Notes under the pieces: generated by a model | What the model saw: the letters and a program-made list of their open reading frames with translations, nothing else | Told to the model about the DNA's origin: nothing | Database searches by the model: none | DNA from: an uncultured Anaerolineae bacterium | GTDB lineage: Bacteria; Chloroflexota; Anaerolineae; JACIWP01 | DNA: 64,000 nt | NCBI GenBank assembly: GCA_938049385.1 | Contig: CALIBQ010000009.1 | Span: 1 to 64,000 of the forward strand | Direction of reading: 5' to 3' | Made by a program: the position numbers and the translations under genes | In this document: one piece after another, positions 5,973 to 40,444 of the stretch | How positions within the stretch are numbered: position 1 is the first letter of the stretch | Layout: each line of letters opens with the position of its first letter

Positions 5973-7199
5973 TCATCTCCTCCCCTGGACAGAGGCCTGC
6001 AGTTGATCGCGCACGAAATCCCAGATGCGGTGCGCCACTTCCTCCTTGGTCATCAGCGGCAGGGCCTGACTGCCGGCACGGCTGATGAGGATGACGCGGT
6101 TGGTGTCCACCTCAAAGCCGCTGTCCGGCGCCGTAACATCGTTGGCGACGATGAGGTCCAGGCCCTTACGCAGGAGCTTCTCGCGGGCATATTCCTCCAC
6201 CTGCTGGGTCTCAGCGGCGAAGCCGACCAGCACCGCCAGCGCGCCCCATTCCTCCCGCCGGCGTGCCACCTCCCCCAGGATGTCCGGCGTGCGCTCCAGC
6301 TCCAGCACCAGCTCGCCGGCGGTCTTTTTGATCTTCTGCTCCTGGCGCACCTTGGGCCGATAGTCCGCTACGGCCGCCGACATCACCAGCGCCTCGCACC
6401 CCGGCGCCCAATGCACCACCGCCTCATACATCTCCTGCGCCGATTCCACCAGCACCCGCTCCACACCGCGAGGGCATTCCAGCCACGTGGGGCCGCTCAC
6501 CAGCACCACCTGGCCGCCGCGATCGCGCGCTGCGGCCGCCAGGGCATAGCCCATCTTGCCGGAGGAGCGGTTGCCGATGAAGCGCACTGGGTCCAGCGCC
6601 TCGCGGGTCCCGCCGGCGGTGACCAGGAGCCGCCGGCCGGCCAGGTCACCTTTCAGCCCGATGATGCGCCGCGCCTCCTCGAGGATTTCCGGCGGCTCGA
6701 CCATACGGCCCAGCCCAAACCCGCCGGAGGCCAGTCGGCCCTCCGCCGGCCCGATGACGTACATGCCGCGCTCGCGCAGGAGCGCCATATTGGCCTGCGT
6801 GGCGGGGTTCTGCCACATGTGCATCTCCATAGCCGGCGCCAGCAGGATGGGACAGCGCGCCGCCAGCGCCGTGGTGGTCAGCAGGTTGTCCGCCATCCCA
6901 TGGGCCAGCTTGGCGATGGTGTTGGCAGTCGCCGGCGCGATGATCATCAAATCGGCCGATTGCCCCAGCGCCACGTGGCTGATGGCGATGTCTTCATCAG
7001 GAGCGAACATGTCTACCCGAACCGGCCGGCCGGTCAGCGCTTGGAAGGTCAACGGAGCCACGAACTGGACTGCCGCCGGCGTCATGACCACATCTACCAG
7101 GGCGCCGGCCTTCACCAGCCGGCTGGCCAGGTCCGCAGACTTATAGGCGGCGATGCCGCCGCTCACCCCCAGGACGATGCGTTTGCCCTGCAGGTTCAT
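5973..7199 (-). CDS. coaBC: Bifunctional phosphopantothenoylcysteine decarboxylase/synthetase
   Basis: Second and third steps of CoA synthesis from pantothenate: ligation of 4'-phosphopantothenate with cysteine (C-terminal CoaB) and decarboxylation to 4'-phosphopantetheine (N-terminal CoaC flavoprotein). The 408 residues show the FMN-binding GVSGGIAAYK, His75 (ISHVALG), APATANTIAK, and the CoaB signature TAGGTREALDPVRFIGNRSSG. Two usual active-site residues differ from E. coli: PAMEMHMW has Glu at 125 where Asn is usual, and RLASGGFGLGRM has Ser at 158 where Cys is usual. It lies 9 bases downstream of coaX on the same strand. Confidence 0.94.
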   Translation of the reverse strand: MNLQGKRIVLGVSGGIAAYKSADLASRLVKAGALVDVVMTPAAVQFVAPLTFQALTGRPVRVDMFAPDEDIAISHVALGQSADLMIIAPATANTIAKLAHGMADNLLTTTALAARCPILLAPAMEMHMWQNPATQANMALLRERGMYVIGPAEGRLASGGFGLGRMVEPPEILEEARRIIGLKGDLAGRRLLVTAGGTREALDPVRFIGNRSSGKMGYALAAAARDRGGQVVLVSGPTWLECPRGVERVLVESAQEMYEAVVHWAPGCEALVMSAAVADYRPKVRQEQKIKKTAGELVLELERTPDILGEVARRREEWGALAVLVGFAAETQQVEEYAREKLLRKGLDLIVANDVTAPDSGFEVDTNRVILISRAGSQALPLMTKEEVAHRIWDFVRDQLQASVQGRR

Positions 7200-7208
7200 C
7201 GCACTTCC

Positions 7209-7994
7209 TCACTTTCTGGCAGTCTCTTTCTGGTTCAGTTCCCAGATCAGGCGCAGGCCGTCCAGTGTCAGCCAGGGGTCCACCACGTCGAACACCTTGG
7301 TAGCCGGTGCTAGGCGGGCGGCCAGGCCGCCGGTGGCGATGGTGCGCATGGCCGGCCCCAGCTCCTGCCGAAAGCGCTCCACCATCCCCTCCACCAGGCT
7401 GACATAGCCCATGAACACGCCAGAACGCATGCTCTCCACGGTGTTGGTGCCGATAATTTTCGGCGGCTGGGAGAGGTCAATGCGTGGGAGCTGGGCGGTG
7501 CGCATGACTAGCGCTTCCAGCGCGGACTCCAGGCCGGGGGCAATGGCCCCGCCGAGATAATCCCCTTCCTCGGAAATGGCGTCGAACGTGGTGGCCGTGC
7601 CGAAATCCACAATGCACGCCGGTCCGCCGTACTTGCGGAAGCCGGCGGCGGCGTTGACGATGCGGTCTGCGCCGACCTCACGCGGGTTATCCACGCGGAT
7701 GCGGACGCCGGTGCGTACGCCGGCGGAGACCACCAGGGGCGAGATGTGAAGGTAGCGCTCGAACATTTCGCTGAAGATACCGGTCAGCGGCGGCACCACA
7801 CTGCACATGCAGACGGCATGGATATCGTCGGCCCGTTTGCCGGCGTAGTTCAGCATCTGCAGTAACAGCAGGCCGTACTCGTCCGGCATGCGGTGATAGT
7901 CGGTCATGATGCGCCAGTGCGTGGAAAGCGCCTCTCCGTCATATACCCCCAGGACGATATTGGTATTGCCGATGTCCACACATAGCAGTGCCAT
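7209..7994 (-). CDS. coaX: Type III pantothenate kinase
   Basis: Phosphorylates pantothenate in the first step of CoA synthesis. The 261-residue protein has the family hallmarks: CVDIGNTNIVLGVYDG at the N-terminus, REVGADRIVNAAAG with the catalytic Asp, VDFGTATTFDAISE, and GGAIAPGLESALEAL. Length is typical for CoaX. It is followed at once by coaBC and preceded by an ECF S-component, giving a compact uptake and activation unit. CoaX needs a monovalent cation and is insensitive to CoA feedback in characterised members. Confidence 0.95.
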   Translation of the reverse strand: MALLCVDIGNTNIVLGVYDGEALSTHWRIMTDYHRMPDEYGLLLLQMLNYAGKRADDIHAVCMCSVVPPLTGIFSEMFERYLHISPLVVSAGVRTGVRIRVDNPREVGADRIVNAAAGFRKYGGPACIVDFGTATTFDAISEEGDYLGGAIAPGLESALEALVMRTAQLPRIDLSQPPKIIGTNTVESMRSGVFMGYVSLVEGMVERFRQELGPAMRTIATGGLAARLAPATKVFDVVDPWLTLDGLRLIWELNQKETARK

Positions 7995-8021: not shown

Positions 8022-8564
8022 TCAGAGCCGGGCGTGTCGGCGGCGGGCCAGCCCTTTCCAGGTCGATACCACTGCCACCACGATGATGACCGCCACCGCA
8101 ATTTCGGGTAGGCCGTGGGTGATACCCACGGTAAAGGCAACGCCCGGAGTCATATACCCGCGCCAGACCGCCGCACCCAGCACCAGCACCGTGTTGGTCA
8201 GCGTGCCCACCGCCGCGGACACCGCCAGCGCCAGGAACTCGTTCAGCCGGCGCAGAGCGATATACGTCAGCCAGGCGGTGATGCCGATGAAAATGCGCGG
8301 CAGGATAGCCACAAAGGGGTCCTTGAACATGGGGATGGTGGCCTGAAAGAAGCTGAAGATGCCGAAGACCAGGCCGATGATCCCTCCGACCGCCGGCCCC
8401 TCCATGATTCCGCCAAGGATGGCCGGCACGTGCATAATGGTGGCGTTGCCGGCCGGCGTCGGCACAGGGATAAAGCCCAACCGCGTCGCTCCGAGCAAGA
8501 TGGCGATGGCCGCCAGCACGCCGGCGGTGACCACCCGCCGCACCAGTTTGTCCGTCCCGTTCAT
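8022..8564 (-). CDS. ECF transporter S component, probably for pantothenate or a precursor
   Basis: Membrane substrate-binding subunit of an energy-coupling-factor transporter. The 180-residue protein is hydrophobic with about six segments. It contains IMHVPAILGGIMEGPAVGG, FFQATIPMFKDPF and ILPRIFIGITAWLTYIALRR, which fit the PanT/HmpT-like S-component group. ATG 8564 sits behind an excellent AGGAGGTG site; a longer upstream frame has no homology. It is encoded between ecfT and coaX, so pantothenate, or possibly pantetheine, is the most economical substrate guess. That substrate is inferred from context only. Confidence 0.82.
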   Translation of the reverse strand: MNGTDKLVRRVVTAGVLAAIAILLGATRLGFIPVPTPAGNATIMHVPAILGGIMEGPAVGGIIGLVFGIFSFFQATIPMFKDPFVAILPRIFIGITAWLTYIALRRLNEFLALAVSAAVGTLTNTVLVLGAAVWRGYMTPGVAFTVGITHGLPEIAVAVIIVVAVVSTWKGLARRRHARL

Positions 8565-8584: not shown

Positions 8585-9442
8585 CTAGAATGGGAAACTT
8601 CTGCGGAACCAGATGAAGCCGGCCGACAGCAGGGCCGTGATGAAAATGATTATCACGTCCGCCGGCTGCATCTGGAGCTGTACCAGACGTGTGCGGCCTC
8701 GGCCGCCGGCGTAACAGCGCGCCTCCATGGCAACGATCAGCTCCTCCGCCCGCCGAAAGGCATCCAGGAACAGCGGCACGATAAGCACCAGCATGGCGCG
8801 CGCCGTGCGCCAGAAACGCCATCGGCCGCCGGCTCCGATATCCGCCCCGCGCGAGGCCTGCGCCTTGGCCAGTGTCTCCAACTGCTCCGCCAGAAGGGGG
8901 ACAAAGCGCAGTGCGAGGATAAAGATGAGGGAAATCTCATGGGCCGGCACCCCCAGCCGGCCAAACGGCCGCAGCATGTCCTCCAGCCCGTACGCCAGAT
9001 AGGCCAACGGGGTCGTGTTCGTCAGGATGCTGGCCAGGATCATCAGGTCCACAAAGCGCGCCAGGGAGACCAACACCAACTGCAGGCCACTGCTGGTGAT
9101 GAAGATAGGCCCCCAACGCAGGAAAGTAACCACCGGCAGGGTGCTGGTAACGGACGGGTTACCGTAAAAGGCCAACTGCATCAGCGATAGAGCAATGATG
9201 AAGGGGAGCGCCGGCCGCACCCCGTTCAGCACGTAGCGCAGGGAGATGCCGGCGGCACGAATCAATGCCAGGCATATCCCCAACAGGAGGATATTGGCCA
9301 GGTAAGATGTATTCACCGTCAGCGCCAGCGACAGCAACAGCACCACGGTGATCTTGGCGCGCGGGTCCATGCGGTGCACGAGCGAGTCGCCCGGCAGATA
9401 TTGGCCAATAGTGATATGCCTCAGGAGCGCAAAATCCTGCAC
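8585..9442 (-). CDS. ecfT: ECF transporter transmembrane subunit EcfT
   Basis: Membrane coupling subunit that transmits ATPase movement to the S component. The 285-residue protein has several membrane spans and the cytoplasmic coupling region with two Ala-Arg-Gly-like motifs, QASRGAD near residue 205 and MEARCYAGGRGRTRL near residue 240. The opening LPGDSLVHRMDPRAKI is characteristic of EcfT/CbiQ. The start overlaps the end of ecfA2 by 22 bases, indicating coupling. Confidence 0.9.
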   Translation of the reverse strand: MQDFALLRHITIGQYLPGDSLVHRMDPRAKITVVLLLSLALTVNTSYLANILLLGICLALIRAAGISLRYVLNGVRPALPFIIALSLMQLAFYGNPSVTSTLPVVTFLRWGPIFITSSGLQLVLVSLARFVDLMILASILTNTTPLAYLAYGLEDMLRPFGRLGVPAHEISLIFILALRFVPLLAEQLETLAKAQASRGADIGAGGRWRFWRTARAMLVLIVPLFLDAFRRAEELIVAMEARCYAGGRGRTRLVQLQMQPADVIIIFITALLSAGFIWFRRSFPF

Positions 9443-10284
9443 AGTTCCTCCACCGCTTGTTCGAATCGGATGGCGAACGGGTCCACGTCATGTCCCTGCC
9501 GGCGCAGTTCCCCCAACACCCAACTGGTGACCGGCTGATCCAATCCCAAGGACGCCAGCAGATCGGCGCGGGCAAAGACCTCCGCCGGTGTACCTTCTGC
9601 CACCATGCGCCCCTCCGCCATGACGTAGACCCGGCCGGCCAACGCCGCGACCTCTTCCATATCGGAGGAAACTACGATGACCGTCATGCCCTCTTCGGCG
9701 TTCAGCCGGCGCACCTGTTCCAGCCACTCCTCACGGGTCAGCGGGTCCAGCCCGGCCGATGTCTCATCCAAGATGAGCACGCGCGGCCGCAGGGCCAGCA
9801 CGCCGGCGATGGCCACCTTGCGCCGCTCCCCGCCGCTGAGCGCCGCGGTGGGGCGGTCCACAAAAGTCTCGAAATCCAGACCGACGACCCGCATGGCCCA
9901 TTCCACACGCCGGCGAATTTCCTCGCGGGCCAGCCCCATCTGCCGGGGGCCAAAGGCGATGTCGTCCCCCACCAGCGTCTCGAAGAGCTGTCGCTCTGGG
10001 TGCTGGAAGACGATGCCCACCATCTGACGCAGGCGGCGCAGGTCCACCGCTGGGTCGGCCAGGTCCTGTCCGTCTATGATGACATGACCGGATTCCGCCG
10101 GCCGCAGGAGGCCGTTGCAGTGCTGGAGCAGGGTGGACTTGCCGGCGCCGGCTGGTCCGATAAGCCCCACGATTTCGCCGGCGTATACCTCCATAGATGC
10201 GCCACGCAGGGCCACCGCCTCCAGCGGTGTACCAGGGAGATAGGTATAGTGCAGATCGCGAATCGTGATCAGTGGTTCGGTCAC
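9421..10284 (-). CDS. ecfA2: ECF transporter ATPase EcfA2
   Basis: One of two ABC ATPases of the ECF module. The 287 residues contain Walker A GPAGAGKST, Q-loop VFQHPERQLFE, signature LSGGERRKVAIA, Walker B VLILDE and the D-loop SAGLDP. It overlaps the upstream ecfA1 gene by 4 bases and the downstream ecfT gene by 22. The Q-loop QHPE form and the position as second ATPase gene support the A2 assignment. Confidence 0.92.
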   Translation of the reverse strand: MTEPLITIRDLHYTYLPGTPLEAVALRGASMEVYAGEIVGLIGPAGAGKSTLLQHCNGLLRPAESGHVIIDGQDLADPAVDLRRLRQMVGIVFQHPERQLFETLVGDDIAFGPRQMGLAREEIRRRVEWAMRVVGLDFETFVDRPTAALSGGERRKVAIAGVLALRPRVLILDETSAGLDPLTREEWLEQVRRLNAEEGMTVIVVSSDMEEVAALAGRVYVMAEGRMVAEGTPAEVFARADLLASLGLDQPVTSWVLGELRRQGHDVDPFAIRFEQAVEELCRILRS

Positions 10285-11150
10285 AGCCGCCCTCCCGCCG
10301 GCACATGCACCGCATGGGCATGCACCGCCTGGACCAGGGCCGTACGCGTCAGCGGCAGGGGGACGAAAGCCACCCCACTGCGGGCATGGACCGCCTCCGC
10401 CAGCCGCGCCGGCGTCGGGGGCACCAGCCGCAGTTCACGCAGACGCTCCCGCTGAGAAAAGACCTCCTGCGGCGTGCCCTCCAGCGCGATCTTCCCGCCG
10501 GCCAGGACAATAATGCGCTCAGCCAGGGCCGCCTCCTCCATAAAGTGGGTGATGGCAATGATGGTAGTGCCGGCGGCGTGCAGTCGCCCGACGACCTGGA
10601 GCACCTCAGCGCGGCTGGCCGGGTCCAGCATGCTGGTGGCCTCGTCCAGCACCAGGCAGGCCGGCTCCATGGCCAGCACGCCGGCGATGGCGACCCGCTG
10701 TCGCTGACCGCCAGAGAGCAAATGGGGCGGGCGGTGGCGCAGTTCCCACAGCCTAACGGCCTGCAGAGCTTTCTCGACGCGCTGGACCAGCGCCGGCCGG
10801 GGCACCCCCAGGTTCTCCGGTCCAAAGGCCACATCCTCTTCCACCAGGGTGCCCACAATCTGATTATCCGGGTCCTGAAAGACCATGCCGACAATGCGGC
10901 GAATGGCCAGGGTATGGCGCGGGTCCGTGGTGTCCATGCCCTGGACGTACACCTTGCCGCGCGTGGGCAGGAGCAGGGCGTTGAGATGGCGGGCGAGGGT
11001 GGATTTGCCCGAGCCGTTGTGGCCGACGATGGCGACGTACTCGCCCCGCCGGATGGTCAGGGAGATGCCGTTCAGCGCCGGCACGGCGTCTGGCTCGTCG
11101 GCGCGGTACGCAAAATATACATCTTCCACACGAATCAAGACGTCATCCAT
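10281..11150 (-). CDS. ecfA1: ECF transporter ATPase EcfA1
   Basis: First gene of the ECF-CoA operon. The 289-residue ABC ATPase has Walker A GHNGSGKST, Q-loop VFQDPDNQIVG, signature LSGGQRQRVAIA and Walker B CLVLDEATSMLDP. Start ATG 11150 (MDDVLIRVEDVYFAY) agrees with homologues; an upstream in-frame extension runs back through the leader terminator and was rejected. Ribosome binding is weak (GGGGGCTTGGGC before the ATG). A terminator hairpin ends about 20 bases upstream of the start, so expression is probably controlled by read-through. Confidence 0.92.
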   Translation of the reverse strand: MDDVLIRVEDVYFAYRADEPDAVPALNGISLTIRRGEYVAIVGHNGSGKSTLARHLNALLLPTRGKVYVQGMDTTDPRHTLAIRRIVGMVFQDPDNQIVGTLVEEDVAFGPENLGVPRPALVQRVEKALQAVRLWELRHRPPHLLSGGQRQRVAIAGVLAMEPACLVLDEATSMLDPASRAEVLQVVGRLHAAGTTIIAITHFMEEAALAERIIVLAGGKIALEGTPQEVFSQRERLRELRLVPPTPARLAEAVHARSGVAFVPLPLTRTALVQAVHAHAVHVPAGGRL

Positions 11151-11169: not shown

Positions 11170-11199
11170 CAAAAAAGCCCACAGCACACGACTGTGGGC
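11170..11199 (-). terminator. Intrinsic terminator in the ecfA1 leader
   Basis: On the minus strand GCCCACAG, a 7-base loop and CTGTGGGC are followed by a run of six T. It lies inside the transcribed leader, about 20 bases before the ecfA1 ATG and after the promoter at 11329-11356. It therefore acts as an attenuator and not as the end of another gene. Its first arm overlaps a segment that can pair with the start of the leader. Confidence 0.85.
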
Positions 11200-11325
11200 G
11201 CCTTTCCGGCATTTCACTGGAATATGGCGTCGTCTCGGTCGCGTGCCGATCCAAGCGACTGCTGGTGCAAATGATTATCAATGGCTCACTGCCGGCGCCT
11301 TACCGGTCAGCGGCACCCATTCGAT
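11200..11325 (-). promoter_or_regulatory. Candidate attenuator/riboswitch leader of the ECF-CoA operon
   Basis: The leader between promoter and terminator can form competing structures. TGGGTGCC (11319-11312, minus strand) can pair with GGCGCCCA (11202-11195), which contains the 5' arm of the terminator. Alternatively AATGG (11321-11317) pairs with CCATT (11284-11280), closing a hairpin whose upper stem is CTG-A-CCGG against CCGGCAG. A further GTCGC/GCGAC stem lies downstream. No conserved core of the TPP, FMN, cobalamin, THF, purine, SAM or lysine classes was recognised. Pairings were found by eye; ligand and function are unknown. Confidence 0.45.
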
Positions 11326-11328
11326 ATA

Positions 11329-11356
11329 ATTATACCACTGCTGTAGCTTTTGGCAA
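11329..11356 (-). promoter_or_regulatory. Promoter of the ECF-CoA operon
   Basis: On the minus strand TTGCCA (11356-11351), 16 bases, perfect TATAAT (11334-11329). The predicted start near 11322 gives a leader of about 170 bases before ecfA1. Confidence 0.75.
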
Positions 11357-11369
11357 AGTGAGAGGCTGA

Positions 11370-11400
11370 GAGATTCGCCGGCGGCTGGAAGCCGCCGTTT
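11370..11400. repeat. Modular palindromic repeat, copy 2 (short)
   Basis: AGATTCGCCGGCGGCTGGAA followed by GCCGCCG repeats the first module of copy 1 near 165-190 with one substitution. The palindrome CGGCGGC...GCCGCCG lies between the divergent promoters of the ECF operon and rpsO. Confidence 0.7.
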
Positions 11401-36260: not shown

Positions 36261-37700
36261 TTACAGCACGATGCCAGCGATCTCGCGCCGGATGCGCGTA
36301 TCCACCTCATCTGGCCAGCGTGCCGGCTGATGCGATTGGAGGATATGCCGCGCTTTCTCGCGGGCGCGGTCGCGGGCGGTCTTGGCGCCGGCGGCGACCC
36401 AATCCTCGCGCGACTCCCGGTCGCTGAGGGTCGGGAAGTAGAACTCGCTGCGCAGATGGCGCGCCGTGTGCTCCTCCGCCAGGAAGTTGCCGCCTGGCCC
36501 AACCGTCGCGATTACCTCCTGTGCCAGCGCCTCGGTGCTGACCTCAATGCCCCGCACTGCCCGCATCGCCATGCCGATGACCTCGTTATCAATGACGTAC
36601 TTCTCGTAGCTGGCGACCATGGCGAACTCCATCAGGCCGGCCGCGTCGTGGATGAAATTGGCGCCCGAGAGCGCCGCCATCAGCGTGGTCATGGCACCCT
36701 CGTAGCCGGTCTGGACATCCAGCGCCTTGGAATCGGACATACCGGAGGTGGCGTAGCAGGGCAGGTTCCAGTAATGGGAGAGCTGGGCGACGCCGGCGTT
36801 CAGCAGACCCTGCTCCACCGCCCCAGAGAGATAGCCCATATTGCGCAGGTCGGTGATGGTGCCCACATAACCGGGCAGGCAGGGCGACCCTTTGCGGGTC
36901 AACTGCACCAACGTCACGCCGCTGAGCGCCTCCGCCGCCCACTGGGCCAGATGGCCGGCCAGGGTGATGGGGGCCGTGGCGCCGCTCAGCGGCTCCACCG
37001 AGATGCTGACGGGCAAACCGCGGCGGACGATCTCCAGCATCATGTCGGTGTAGTGCGCGTCCATCTTGAGCGGGCTGATGAGACAGATGATGAACGAGAG
37101 GATGGGCCGCTCGCGCAGGGCATCGGGACCGCCGGCGATGATCTCGCCCATGCGAATTACCTGGCGCACCCCTTCCAGCGTATAGACGCCGCCCTGAATA
37201 TGCTTACTGCAGTTGGACAGCGAGGCATAAAAACGGTTGACATCCACCTGCTCCACCGGCAGTTCGTTGGGATACACCGGGATAACGATAAAATGGACGT
37301 TGTCCAGGGCATCCACGAGCCGGGCGATGTCCGCCACATCCTGGGTCGTGGATTTGCGCTTGTTGCCCTCCAGGTCCAGCACGTAAATGGTGGTGCCGCC
37401 GGTGCCCAGGTAGACGCGGTTGCCCTCCAGGACCAGGTCGTGGCGCTCATCGCGGCCGGCCAGCAGGACACGCGAGGGCGCGCTGGCGATGGCATCCTCC
37501 ACCATGGCGCGCGGGATGCGCACCACGCGCGTGTCGCGATCCACCTTGGCGCCGGCGGCCGCGAATATCTCGAACGCCTCCGCGCTGTTGACCTGGGTAC
37601 CCACTTCCCAGAGGATATCCAGCGCCACCTGATGGATGCGCCCCACCGATTCAGGGGACAGCGGCCGATACTGGCCTCCTTCGAAACCTCCAGAACCCAT
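36261..37700 (-). CDS. MttB-superfamily (non-pyrrolysine) methyltransferase-like protein 1
   Basis: A 479-residue protein of the trimethylamine methyltransferase superfamily (COG5598). The N-terminus (LSPESVGRIHQVALDILWEVG) and the barrel segments LVDALDNVHFIVIPVYPN, SNCSKHIQGGVYTLEG, TLAGHLAQWAAEALSGVTL and YATSGMSDSKALDVQTGYE are diagnostic. No in-frame TAG is used, so it belongs to the non-pyrrolysine branch, which includes glycine betaine and other quaternary-amine demethylases. No corrinoid protein gene is next to it. It is the last gene of a four-gene unit with an EamA permease, an IclR regulator and a paralogue. Confidence 0.87.
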   Translation of the reverse strand: MGSGGFEGGQYRPLSPESVGRIHQVALDILWEVGTQVNSAEAFEIFAAAGAKVDRDTRVVRIPRAMVEDAIASAPSRVLLAGRDERHDLVLEGNRVYLGTGGTTIYVLDLEGNKRKSTTQDVADIARLVDALDNVHFIVIPVYPNELPVEQVDVNRFYASLSNCSKHIQGGVYTLEGVRQVIRMGEIIAGGPDALRERPILSFIICLISPLKMDAHYTDMMLEIVRRGLPVSISVEPLSGATAPITLAGHLAQWAAEALSGVTLVQLTRKGSPCLPGYVGTITDLRNMGYLSGAVEQGLLNAGVAQLSHYWNLPCYATSGMSDSKALDVQTGYEGAMTTLMAALSGANFIHDAAGLMEFAMVASYEKYVIDNEVIGMAMRAVRGIEVSTEALAQEVIATVGPGGNFLAEEHTARHLRSEFYFPTLSDRESREDWVAAGAKTARDRAREKARHILQSHQPARWPDEVDTRIRREIAGIVL

Positions 37701-38994: not shown

Positions 38995-40444
38995 GCCCTT
39001 CCTCCAGCCCATCATGCACGCCGAAGCGCTCCCGCAGAAGGGCATCCTGCTCCGGCGAGAGGCAGGGGACCGCCGGCTCCGCCAGCAAGTCCATCACCCA
39101 CTGGGCCGCCCGCTGGCGCGCCGAGCTTTTGCCGGCGGAGATCCACGTTTCTCGCGCGCCGCGATCCATCAGCCGCGGGAAGACCATCTCCTCCCGCATA
39201 TGCCGCAGGGTGTGCTCGTCCATGAGGTAATGCCCGCCTGGTCCGACGCGCCGGATAGCCTCGCCGGCCATATGCTCTGCATCCACGGCGATGCCCCGCA
39301 TGACGCGCTTGACCATGAGGATGATGTCATTGTCCAGCGCCATCTGCTCATAGGACACCGCGTTCATGTTCTCGATCATGCCGACGGCGTGATGGATGTA
39401 GGAGGCGCCGGCCATGGCGGTCAGCAGTAGGGTCAGGGTTTTCTCGGCGCCGGCCTGGAAGTCCGGCACCTTGGCATCGCTCATGCCGGCGGAGCAGTAG
39501 ATCGGCACGCCGTAGAACTGCGCCAATTGGGCGGCGCCGGCCTGCATCAGGCCGAATTCCGGTGTGCCGCCCAGATAACCGCCGGTGCCGGGGTTCATCT
39601 GGCCGGGGATATAGCCGGCCAGCACCGGTGTGCCGCGCCGCACGAGCTGGGTGTAGACAATGCCGGCGAGCTGTTCGGCGTTGAGCTGGACCAACGTGCC
39701 GGCCAGGGTCATGGGAGAGGTGGAGCCGGCCATAGGCGCCGAGGACAGGGCCACCGGCATGCCGTGCTCGCACCAGAAGGTCAGGATTTCGGTCACGTCC
39801 GGGTCAAAGGTCAGCGGGGAGACCATCCAGGAGGTCATACAGGAGATGAAGGGACGCTGGCGCAGGGCTTCCTCACCGCCGGCGAGCAGACTGCCCATTT
39901 CCAGCACCTGCCTGGCACCCTGTAGGTTAATGAGTCCGCCCATAATGTGTTTGGTGGTGTGCCGCAGTGCGGCATGAAAGCGGTGTGCGGCGATCTTGTC
40001 TGGCGGGATGTCGGTCGGGGTCACCGGCAGGACGAAGAAGTCTACCTGCTCCAGGCGTTGTGCCAGCCGGGCGAGCTGGGCGACATCCCGCAGGAGCGCC
40101 GGCCTCACGTCATCCTCGCCTGGCGGCAGTACCAGGCTGGGGGAACCGCCGGTGCCGAAGTGCACGCGCCGGCCCTCCAGCAGTATGTCGTTCTGGCCGT
40201 CGCGGCTGGCGAGGAGAACGGAACGGGGCACGCTGGCGAGCGCGTCCTCGACCATGGAAGCGGGGATGCGCACCCGGTTGCCCTGCACTGGTGCGCCGGC
40301 GTCCTGGAAGCGCCGGCGCGCGCTCATCAACGGGACCTCGACACCGACCTCGGCGAGGACGGCCAGCGATTCCTGGTGGATGGCCCGCAGGTCGGCCGGC
40401 GACAATGGTGCGAACTGCCCCCCTTCCACGGCTTGCCGGATCAT
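38984..40444 (-). CDS. MttB-superfamily (non-pyrrolysine) methyltransferase-like protein 2
   Basis: A 486-residue paralogue of the protein at 36261-37700, and the promoter-proximal gene of the same unit. Matching segments are LSPADLRAIHQESLAVLAEVGV, TTKHIMGGLINLQGARQVLEM, GSTSPMTLAGTLVQLNAEQLA, YCSAGMSDAKVPDFQAGAE and GPGGHYLMDEHTLRHMREEM. ATG 40444 follows GGAGG at seven bases; TTG 40459 would include that site. The two copies differ strongly in sequence, suggesting different substrates or a heteromeric complex. Confidence 0.87.
   Translation of the reverse strand: MIRQAVEGGQFAPLSPADLRAIHQESLAVLAEVGVEVPLMSARRRFQDAGAPVQGNRVRIPASMVEDALASVPRSVLLASRDGQNDILLEGRRVHFGTGGSPSLVLPPGEDDVRPALLRDVAQLARLAQRLEQVDFFVLPVTPTDIPPDKIAAHRFHAALRHTTKHIMGGLINLQGARQVLEMGSLLAGGEEALRQRPFISCMTSWMVSPLTFDPDVTEILTFWCEHGMPVALSSAPMAGSTSPMTLAGTLVQLNAEQLAGIVYTQLVRRGTPVLAGYIPGQMNPGTGGYLGGTPEFGLMQAGAAQLAQFYGVPIYCSAGMSDAKVPDFQAGAEKTLTLLLTAMAGASYIHHAVGMIENMNAVSYEQMALDNDIILMVKRVMRGIAVDAEHMAGEAIRRVGPGGHYLMDEHTLRHMREEMVFPRLMDRGARETWISAGKSSARQRAAQWVMDLLAEPAVPCLSPEQDALLRERFGVHDGLEEGHAG

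What the first reader, a model, noticed from the sequence alone, without database searches (positions are those of the whole stretch)
11170..11356. Candidate orphan riboswitch/attenuator controlling the ECF-CoA operon
A strong promoter, a leader of about 150 bases and an intrinsic terminator stand before ecfA1. The leader start TGGGTGCC can pair over 8 bp with GGCGCCCA, which overlaps the terminator's first arm. A competing local hairpin (AATGG/CCATT plus CTG-A-CCGG/CCGGCAG) uses the same 5' bases. Mutually exclusive pairing of this kind is the hallmark of conditional termination, and no known riboswitch core was recognised.
Basis: partly seen in the sequence, partly recalled or inferred. Interest (0 to 1): 0.7.

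Follow-up and report, generated by a model that had tools for sequence, protein, structure and literature searches.

The report
pan-motif RNA controlling vitamin B5 uptake
The stretch before this vitamin B5 (pantothenate) uptake and coenzyme A operon is a diverged copy of a known RNA control element, the pan motif, followed by a transcription stop; what the pan motif senses is unknown, so the example matters mainly as a clue to how bacteria control their coenzyme A supply.

Summary
The promoter, ~150-nt leader and intrinsic terminator before ecfA1 are real (minus strand). The leader is not an unrecognised element: it is a diverged tandem pan motif (Rfam RF01749), two hairpins each carrying the two bulged A's that define pan. 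Rfam scores it 24.3 bits, below the 36.2 cut-off, so a standard scan misses it. A model built from other families of the class, without this genus, scores it 61.5 bits (E 7e-13). It is the only pan match in the 3.4-Mb genome. In 102 relatives, 17 of 22 base pairs show compensatory changes, and nearly all sit before pantothenate or CoA genes, 43 of 101 before ECF-PanT operons like this one. A terminator follows in 79 of 101 leaders (22 expected). Across the class the 3' strand of pan hairpin 2 is complementary to the terminator's 5' arm, so hairpin 2 and antiterminator exclude each other. Most likely this is negative-feedback transcription attenuation of pantothenate supply. Effector unknown (metabolite or protein). 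New member of a known orphan family; new here are its link to the uptake/CoaX/CoaBC operon and the inferred antiterminator.

The parts
11329..11356 (-). sigma-70-type promoter, TTGCCA-16-TATAAT with extended -10
   Evidence: TGGTATAAT also in sister species
11284..11314 (-). pan hairpin 1: GC-CGCUG-[A11307]-CCGG loop CCGG-CAGUG-[A11286]-GC
   Evidence: covariation
11229..11259 (-). pan hairpin 2: GUCG-CUUGG-[A11250]-UCG-GCACG-CGA-CCGAG-[A11233]-CGAC, nearly invariant across relatives
   Evidence: 100% identical in the genus
11226..11315 (-). whole tandem pan motif (RF01749) match
   Evidence: 24.3 bits Rfam; 61.5 bits, E 7e-13 with a model that leaves out this genus
11177..11199 (-). intrinsic terminator hairpin, T-tract to about 11168, about 18 nt before the ecfA1 start
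   Evidence: terminator after pan in 79/101 relatives vs 22 expected
11312..11319 (-).
   Evidence: forms in silico here, not in sister species
10281..11150 (-). ecfA1, ECF transporter ATPase
   Evidence: TIGR04520 above cut-off
9421..10284 (-). ecfA2, second ECF ATPase
   Evidence: TIGR04521, 302 bits, below its cut-off of 330
8585..9442 (-). ecfT, ECF transmembrane component
   Evidence: TIGR02454, E 6e-17, below cut-off
8022..8564 (-). ECF S component, probably PanT (pantothenate)
   Evidence: PF12822; best PDB match 4rfs_S E 1e-9, then 6zg3_C E 0.04
7209..7994 (-). coaX, type III pantothenate kinase
5973..7199 (-). coaBC, phosphopantothenate-cysteine ligase / phosphopantothenoylcysteine decarboxylase
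   Evidence: TIGR00521

Best explanation
The leader is a tandem pan-motif RNA coupled to an intrinsic terminator. It acts as a transcription attenuator for the operon ecfA1-ecfA2-ecfT-panT-coaX-coaBC (pantothenate import and conversion towards CoA). When the pathway product is plentiful, an effector (metabolite or protein, unknown) holds the two bulged-A hairpins, the terminator forms and the operon is off. When it is scarce, pan sequence is released, pairs with the terminator's 5' arm and transcription continues. Shown here by computation: pan membership, conserved structure, downstream genes, conserved terminator, and class-wide complementarity of the hairpin-2 3' strand to the terminator arm. 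Inferred: the effector, the sign (off when replete), and which segment is the antiterminator in this genus.
For: Rfam pan is the best of the weak hits (E 0.046) and this is the only pan match in the whole genome. A leave-genus-out model scores 61.5 bits against 11.6 for the next place in 64 kb. Pan lies directly before ecfA1 orthologues in many families of the class, and one such leader, G024:C24, reaches Rfam's cut-off at 36.3 bits. Covariation: 95.5% of cells paired, 17 of 22 pairs with two-sided change, 0 of 500 shuffles as high; slid controls 26-45% paired. Gene census: 43 ECF, 39 panB/panE/panD-type, 5 coaX of 101; other phyla likewise. Terminators 79/101 vs 22 expected. Hairpin-2 3' strand fits its own terminator arm better than others' arms (0/5000 permutations; one genome per family, median p<0.001; other classes and phyla p=0.009) and fits pan-linked terminators better than unrelated ones (p=1.5e-8). 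Other leader regions show no such fit.
Against: In this genus the hairpin-2/terminator-arm complementarity is weak (-7.6 kcal/mol, mid-rank), so the antiterminator here is not identified. 22 of 101 leaders show no terminator by my criteria. No effector or expression data. The structure-guided alignment A2 leans towards the structure.
Confidence: 0.85

Rival explanations
1. One reading: a new orphan riboswitch whose switch is the TGGGTGCC/GGCGCCCA antiterminator competing with the terminator.
For: The helix is in the lowest-energy fold of this species' transcript cut before the terminator 3' arm and is the best of 70 leader/arm combinations.
Against: Zero predicted probability in both sister species, whose hairpin 2 and terminator are identical to the window's. 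The region shows no own-arm preference in the class (p=0.88). 2-7% by chance. The core is a known family.
Confidence: 0.12
2. A variant of the best explanation: pan is a protein-binding site (Weinberg et al. 2010 suggested a dimeric protein), and a pathway protein bound to the tandem hairpins sets termination.
For: Simple tandem hairpins with bulged A's; suggestion in PMC2864571.
Against: No candidate protein was found or searched for here; the RNA is shared by many phyla, which would need an equally widespread protein.
Confidence: 0.45
3. Constitutive partial terminator preceded by a stem that does not regulate it.
For: The full-length fold always favours the terminator.
Against: Strong cross-phylum conservation and covariation, with one pathway downstream.
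Confidence: 0.04

Closest known systems
pan motif RNA, Rfam RF01749 (Weinberg et al. 2010, PMC2864571)
   Same: Tandem hairpins, each with two conserved bulged A's five base pairs apart; 5' leader of pantothenate-pathway genes
   Different: Scores below Rfam's cut-off; precedes the uptake/CoaX/CoaBC operon, whereas the paper lists panB, panC and aspartate decarboxylase genes; a linked terminator and hairpin-2 antiterminator are inferred here
ECF-PanT pantothenate transporter (structures 4rfs, 6zg3; PMC7755397)
   Same: S component of the same family
   Different: Dedicated operon with its own ECF module and coaX/coaBC, under pan RNA
Riboswitch and protein-dependent transcription attenuators in general (e.g. 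TRAP/trp leader, PMC3913778)
   Same: Mutually exclusive antiterminator and terminator in a leader
   Different: Sensor is the tandem pan motif; effector unknown

Membership tests
[quoted passage not shown]
   Both hairpins have them, 5 bp apart
pan motif (RF01749) | Tandem arrangement (most members) | tested here: met
   Hairpins at 11314..11284 and 11259..11229
pan motif (RF01749) | Homology to family members by covariance model | tested here: met
   The window itself is below Rfam's cut-off (24.3 vs 36.2 bits). A model from relatives without this genus gives 61.5 bits; relatives reach Rfam's cut-off, including the ecfA1 leader G024:C24 (36.3 bits)
pan motif (RF01749) | Upstream of pantothenate-synthesis genes (context, as described in 2010) | tested here: inconclusive
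   Here the genes are pantothenate uptake, kinase and coaBC rather than panB/C/D; the same RNA precedes panB/panD-type operons in relatives and other phyla
Transcription attenuator | Intrinsic terminator between leader RNA and first gene | tested here: met
Transcription attenuator | Conserved mutually exclusive antiterminator | tested here: inconclusive
   Met for the class; not identified for this genus
Riboswitch | Direct binding of a metabolite by the RNA | not testable with these tools
   Needs in-line probing or similar

The most novel reading that the evidence does not exclude
pan is a true metabolite riboswitch for a coenzyme A pathway compound (pantothenate, phosphopantothenate, CoA or similar), the class that Breaker (2022, PMC9971707) lists as missing, working by handing its hairpin-2 3' strand over between aptamer and antiterminator. 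Its regulon would include transporters not known to carry pantothenate.
Probability: 0.35. Interest if true: 0.85.

Novelty: new member of a known kind. Interest (0 to 1): 0.48.

Why it matters
A 2022 review (PMC9971707) names coenzyme A as a surprising gap among riboswitch ligands. The pan motif has been an orphan since 2010 in the literature I could search. This locus and its relatives show one RNA before pantothenate synthesis, pantothenate uptake and the first CoA steps alike. That narrows the candidate signals to compounds downstream of both supply routes (pantothenate itself or later). The inferred hairpin-2 antiterminator gives a simple in vitro termination assay, and transporters next to pan become testable candidates for pantothenate-type uptake.

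Tried and rejected
H1 3' strand, linker and H2 5' strand as antiterminator partners: no own-arm preference. Other Rfam families at E<10 (STnc310, Thr_leader, P1, snoZ242): weak matches far below their cut-offs, treated as chance. pan control of panB in this genome: panB is present on contig C20 with no pan match anywhere else in the genome, and panC is absent. Literature searches for a pan or CoA riboswitch ligand found none in the open-access library; subscription papers were not searchable. The first family scans of the S component used a wrong frame and gave nothing; redone.

Full report
WHAT IS THERE. On the minus strand, a near-consensus promoter (11356..11329) is followed by a leader of about 150 nt, an intrinsic terminator (11199..11177) and ecfA1 starting at 11150. 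The operon is ecfA1, ecfA2, ecfT, an ECF S component, coaX and coaBC. The S component matches Pfam ECF_trnsprt, and its best PDB matches are 4rfs_S and, weakly, 6zg3_C. I know 4rfs from background knowledge as the Lactobacillus brevis ECF-PanT complex; the ECF-PanT paper PMC7755397 cites both 4RFS and 6ZG3. PanT is therefore the likely identity, supported by the neighbours coaX and coaBC, but substrate specificity is inferred.

IT IS A PAN MOTIF. Rfam at gathering thresholds finds nothing here. At a permissive threshold the best of five weak matches is pan, RF01749, 24.3 bits against a cut-off of 36.2, E 0.046. Read by hand, both hairpins have the pan geometry: outer stem, bulged A on the 3' side, five base pairs, bulged A on the 5' side, inner stem, loop. 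Hairpin 1 is GC-CGCUG-A-CCGG...CCGG-CAGUG-A-GC; hairpin 2 is GUCG-CUUGG-A-UCG-GCACG-CGA-CCGAG-A-CGAC. This is the only pan match in the 3.37-Mb genome.

INDEPENDENT TESTS. Among 60 relatives, 14 have pan matches at E<=1 and three exceed Rfam's cut-off. Leaders of ecfA1 orthologues, found by protein search without reference to RNA, carry the same two hairpins in many families. An alignment of 20 such RNAs gives 95% paired cells and 14 of 22 pairs with two-sided changes. A model of it finds pan in 114 of 396 genomes of the class. With 102 matches, 17 of 22 pairs show two-sided change, 0 of 500 shuffles as good, and slid controls drop to 26-45% paired; that alignment was fitted to the structure, which flatters it. 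To avoid circularity for the window I rebuilt the model without this genus: the window leader scores 61.5 bits, E 7e-13, and the next place in 64 kb scores 11.6.

GENES CONTROLLED. First recognised gene after 101 pan matches in the class: ECF-PanT operon 43; panB, panE, panD or an associated Rossmann-type protein 39; coaX 5; an oligopeptide-type ABC binding protein 7; none 7 (two at contig ends). A pattern scan of named genomes with the hairpin-2 consensus found it in Chloroflexota, Bacillota, Deltaproteobacteria, Acidobacteriota, Myxococcales, Nitrospinia, Binatia, Dadabacteria, Spirochaetia and others (capped, and a few may be chance). 63 of those loci pass the model. 57 of these are followed by panB/panD/panE-type or ECF-PanT genes and three more, by eye, by panC. 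A Spirochaetia genome has the window's gene order type, ecfA1-ecfT-panT-coaX (L180). The 2010 description lists only panB, panC and aspartate decarboxylase operons and proposes a dimeric protein binding site.

MECHANISM. A terminator lies shortly after pan in 79 of 101 leaders against 22 expected from shuffles. I asked which part of each leader is complementary to its own terminator's 5' arm more than to other leaders' arms. Only the hairpin-2 3' strand plus flank is (-11.8 against -10.7 kcal/mol, 0 of 5000 permutations). With one genome per family (28 families) the effect is -1.6 kcal/mol, median p<0.001. In a separate set from other classes and phyla p=0.009. Pan-linked terminator arms often read GCC(Y)CTC or GCCTTCTCGG, complementary to CCGAGACGGC; unrelated terminators from the same loci rarely do (31% vs 1% for GCC-N0-2-CTC; energy test p=1.5e-8). 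Control terminators were found by a similar simple scan and some may not be real. So hairpin 2 and an antiterminator share a strand: pan intact means terminator, pan opened means readthrough. Feedback by a pathway product is the natural reading for supply genes, but the sign and effector are inferred.

THIS GENUS. Here the hairpin-2/arm fit is weak. It is probably incidental or species-specific. The antiterminator of this genus is unresolved.

NOVELTY AND LIMITS. The element is a new, divergent member of a known orphan family. New, as far as the open-access library shows, are the ECF-PanT/coaX/coaBC association, the terminator-linked hairpin-2 antiterminator, and pan before other transporters. 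A 2022 review states that no CoA riboswitch is known, so pan's ligand question matters, but nothing here separates a metabolite sensor from a protein-binding site.

Noticed in passing
L010, L011, L024, L060, L070, L106 (relatives): pan RNAs directly before an oligopeptide-type (SBP_bac_5) ABC transporter binding protein: candidate pantothenate or pantetheine-type uptake system
   Followed up: partly
L121, L130, L132 (relatives, family f10): pan-like RNAs with a very long linker before what look, by eye, like mannose-family PTS IIB/IIC genes, in genomes that also have pan before ECF-PanT
   Followed up: partly
L094, L105 (relatives, family f44): pan RNA (terminator clear in L105) before what looks, by eye, like a PhnD-type ABC substrate-binding lipoprotein
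   Followed up: partly
window 11373-11397: A dispersed ~24-nt repeat (CCGGCGGCTGGAAGCCGCC type) with 36 further partial copies in the genome, just upstream of the promoter
   Followed up: no
window 36641-36740 and 39385-39484 (-): Two PYLIS_3 (pyrrolysine insertion) Rfam hits in two MttB-like genes whose reading frames have no in-frame TAG, so they are probably non-pyrrolysine homologues
   Followed up: partly
G000:C20:30772-31557: Genome has panB but no panC match (completeness about 98%), and panB has no pan leader; this fits dependence on imported pantothenate
   Followed up: partly
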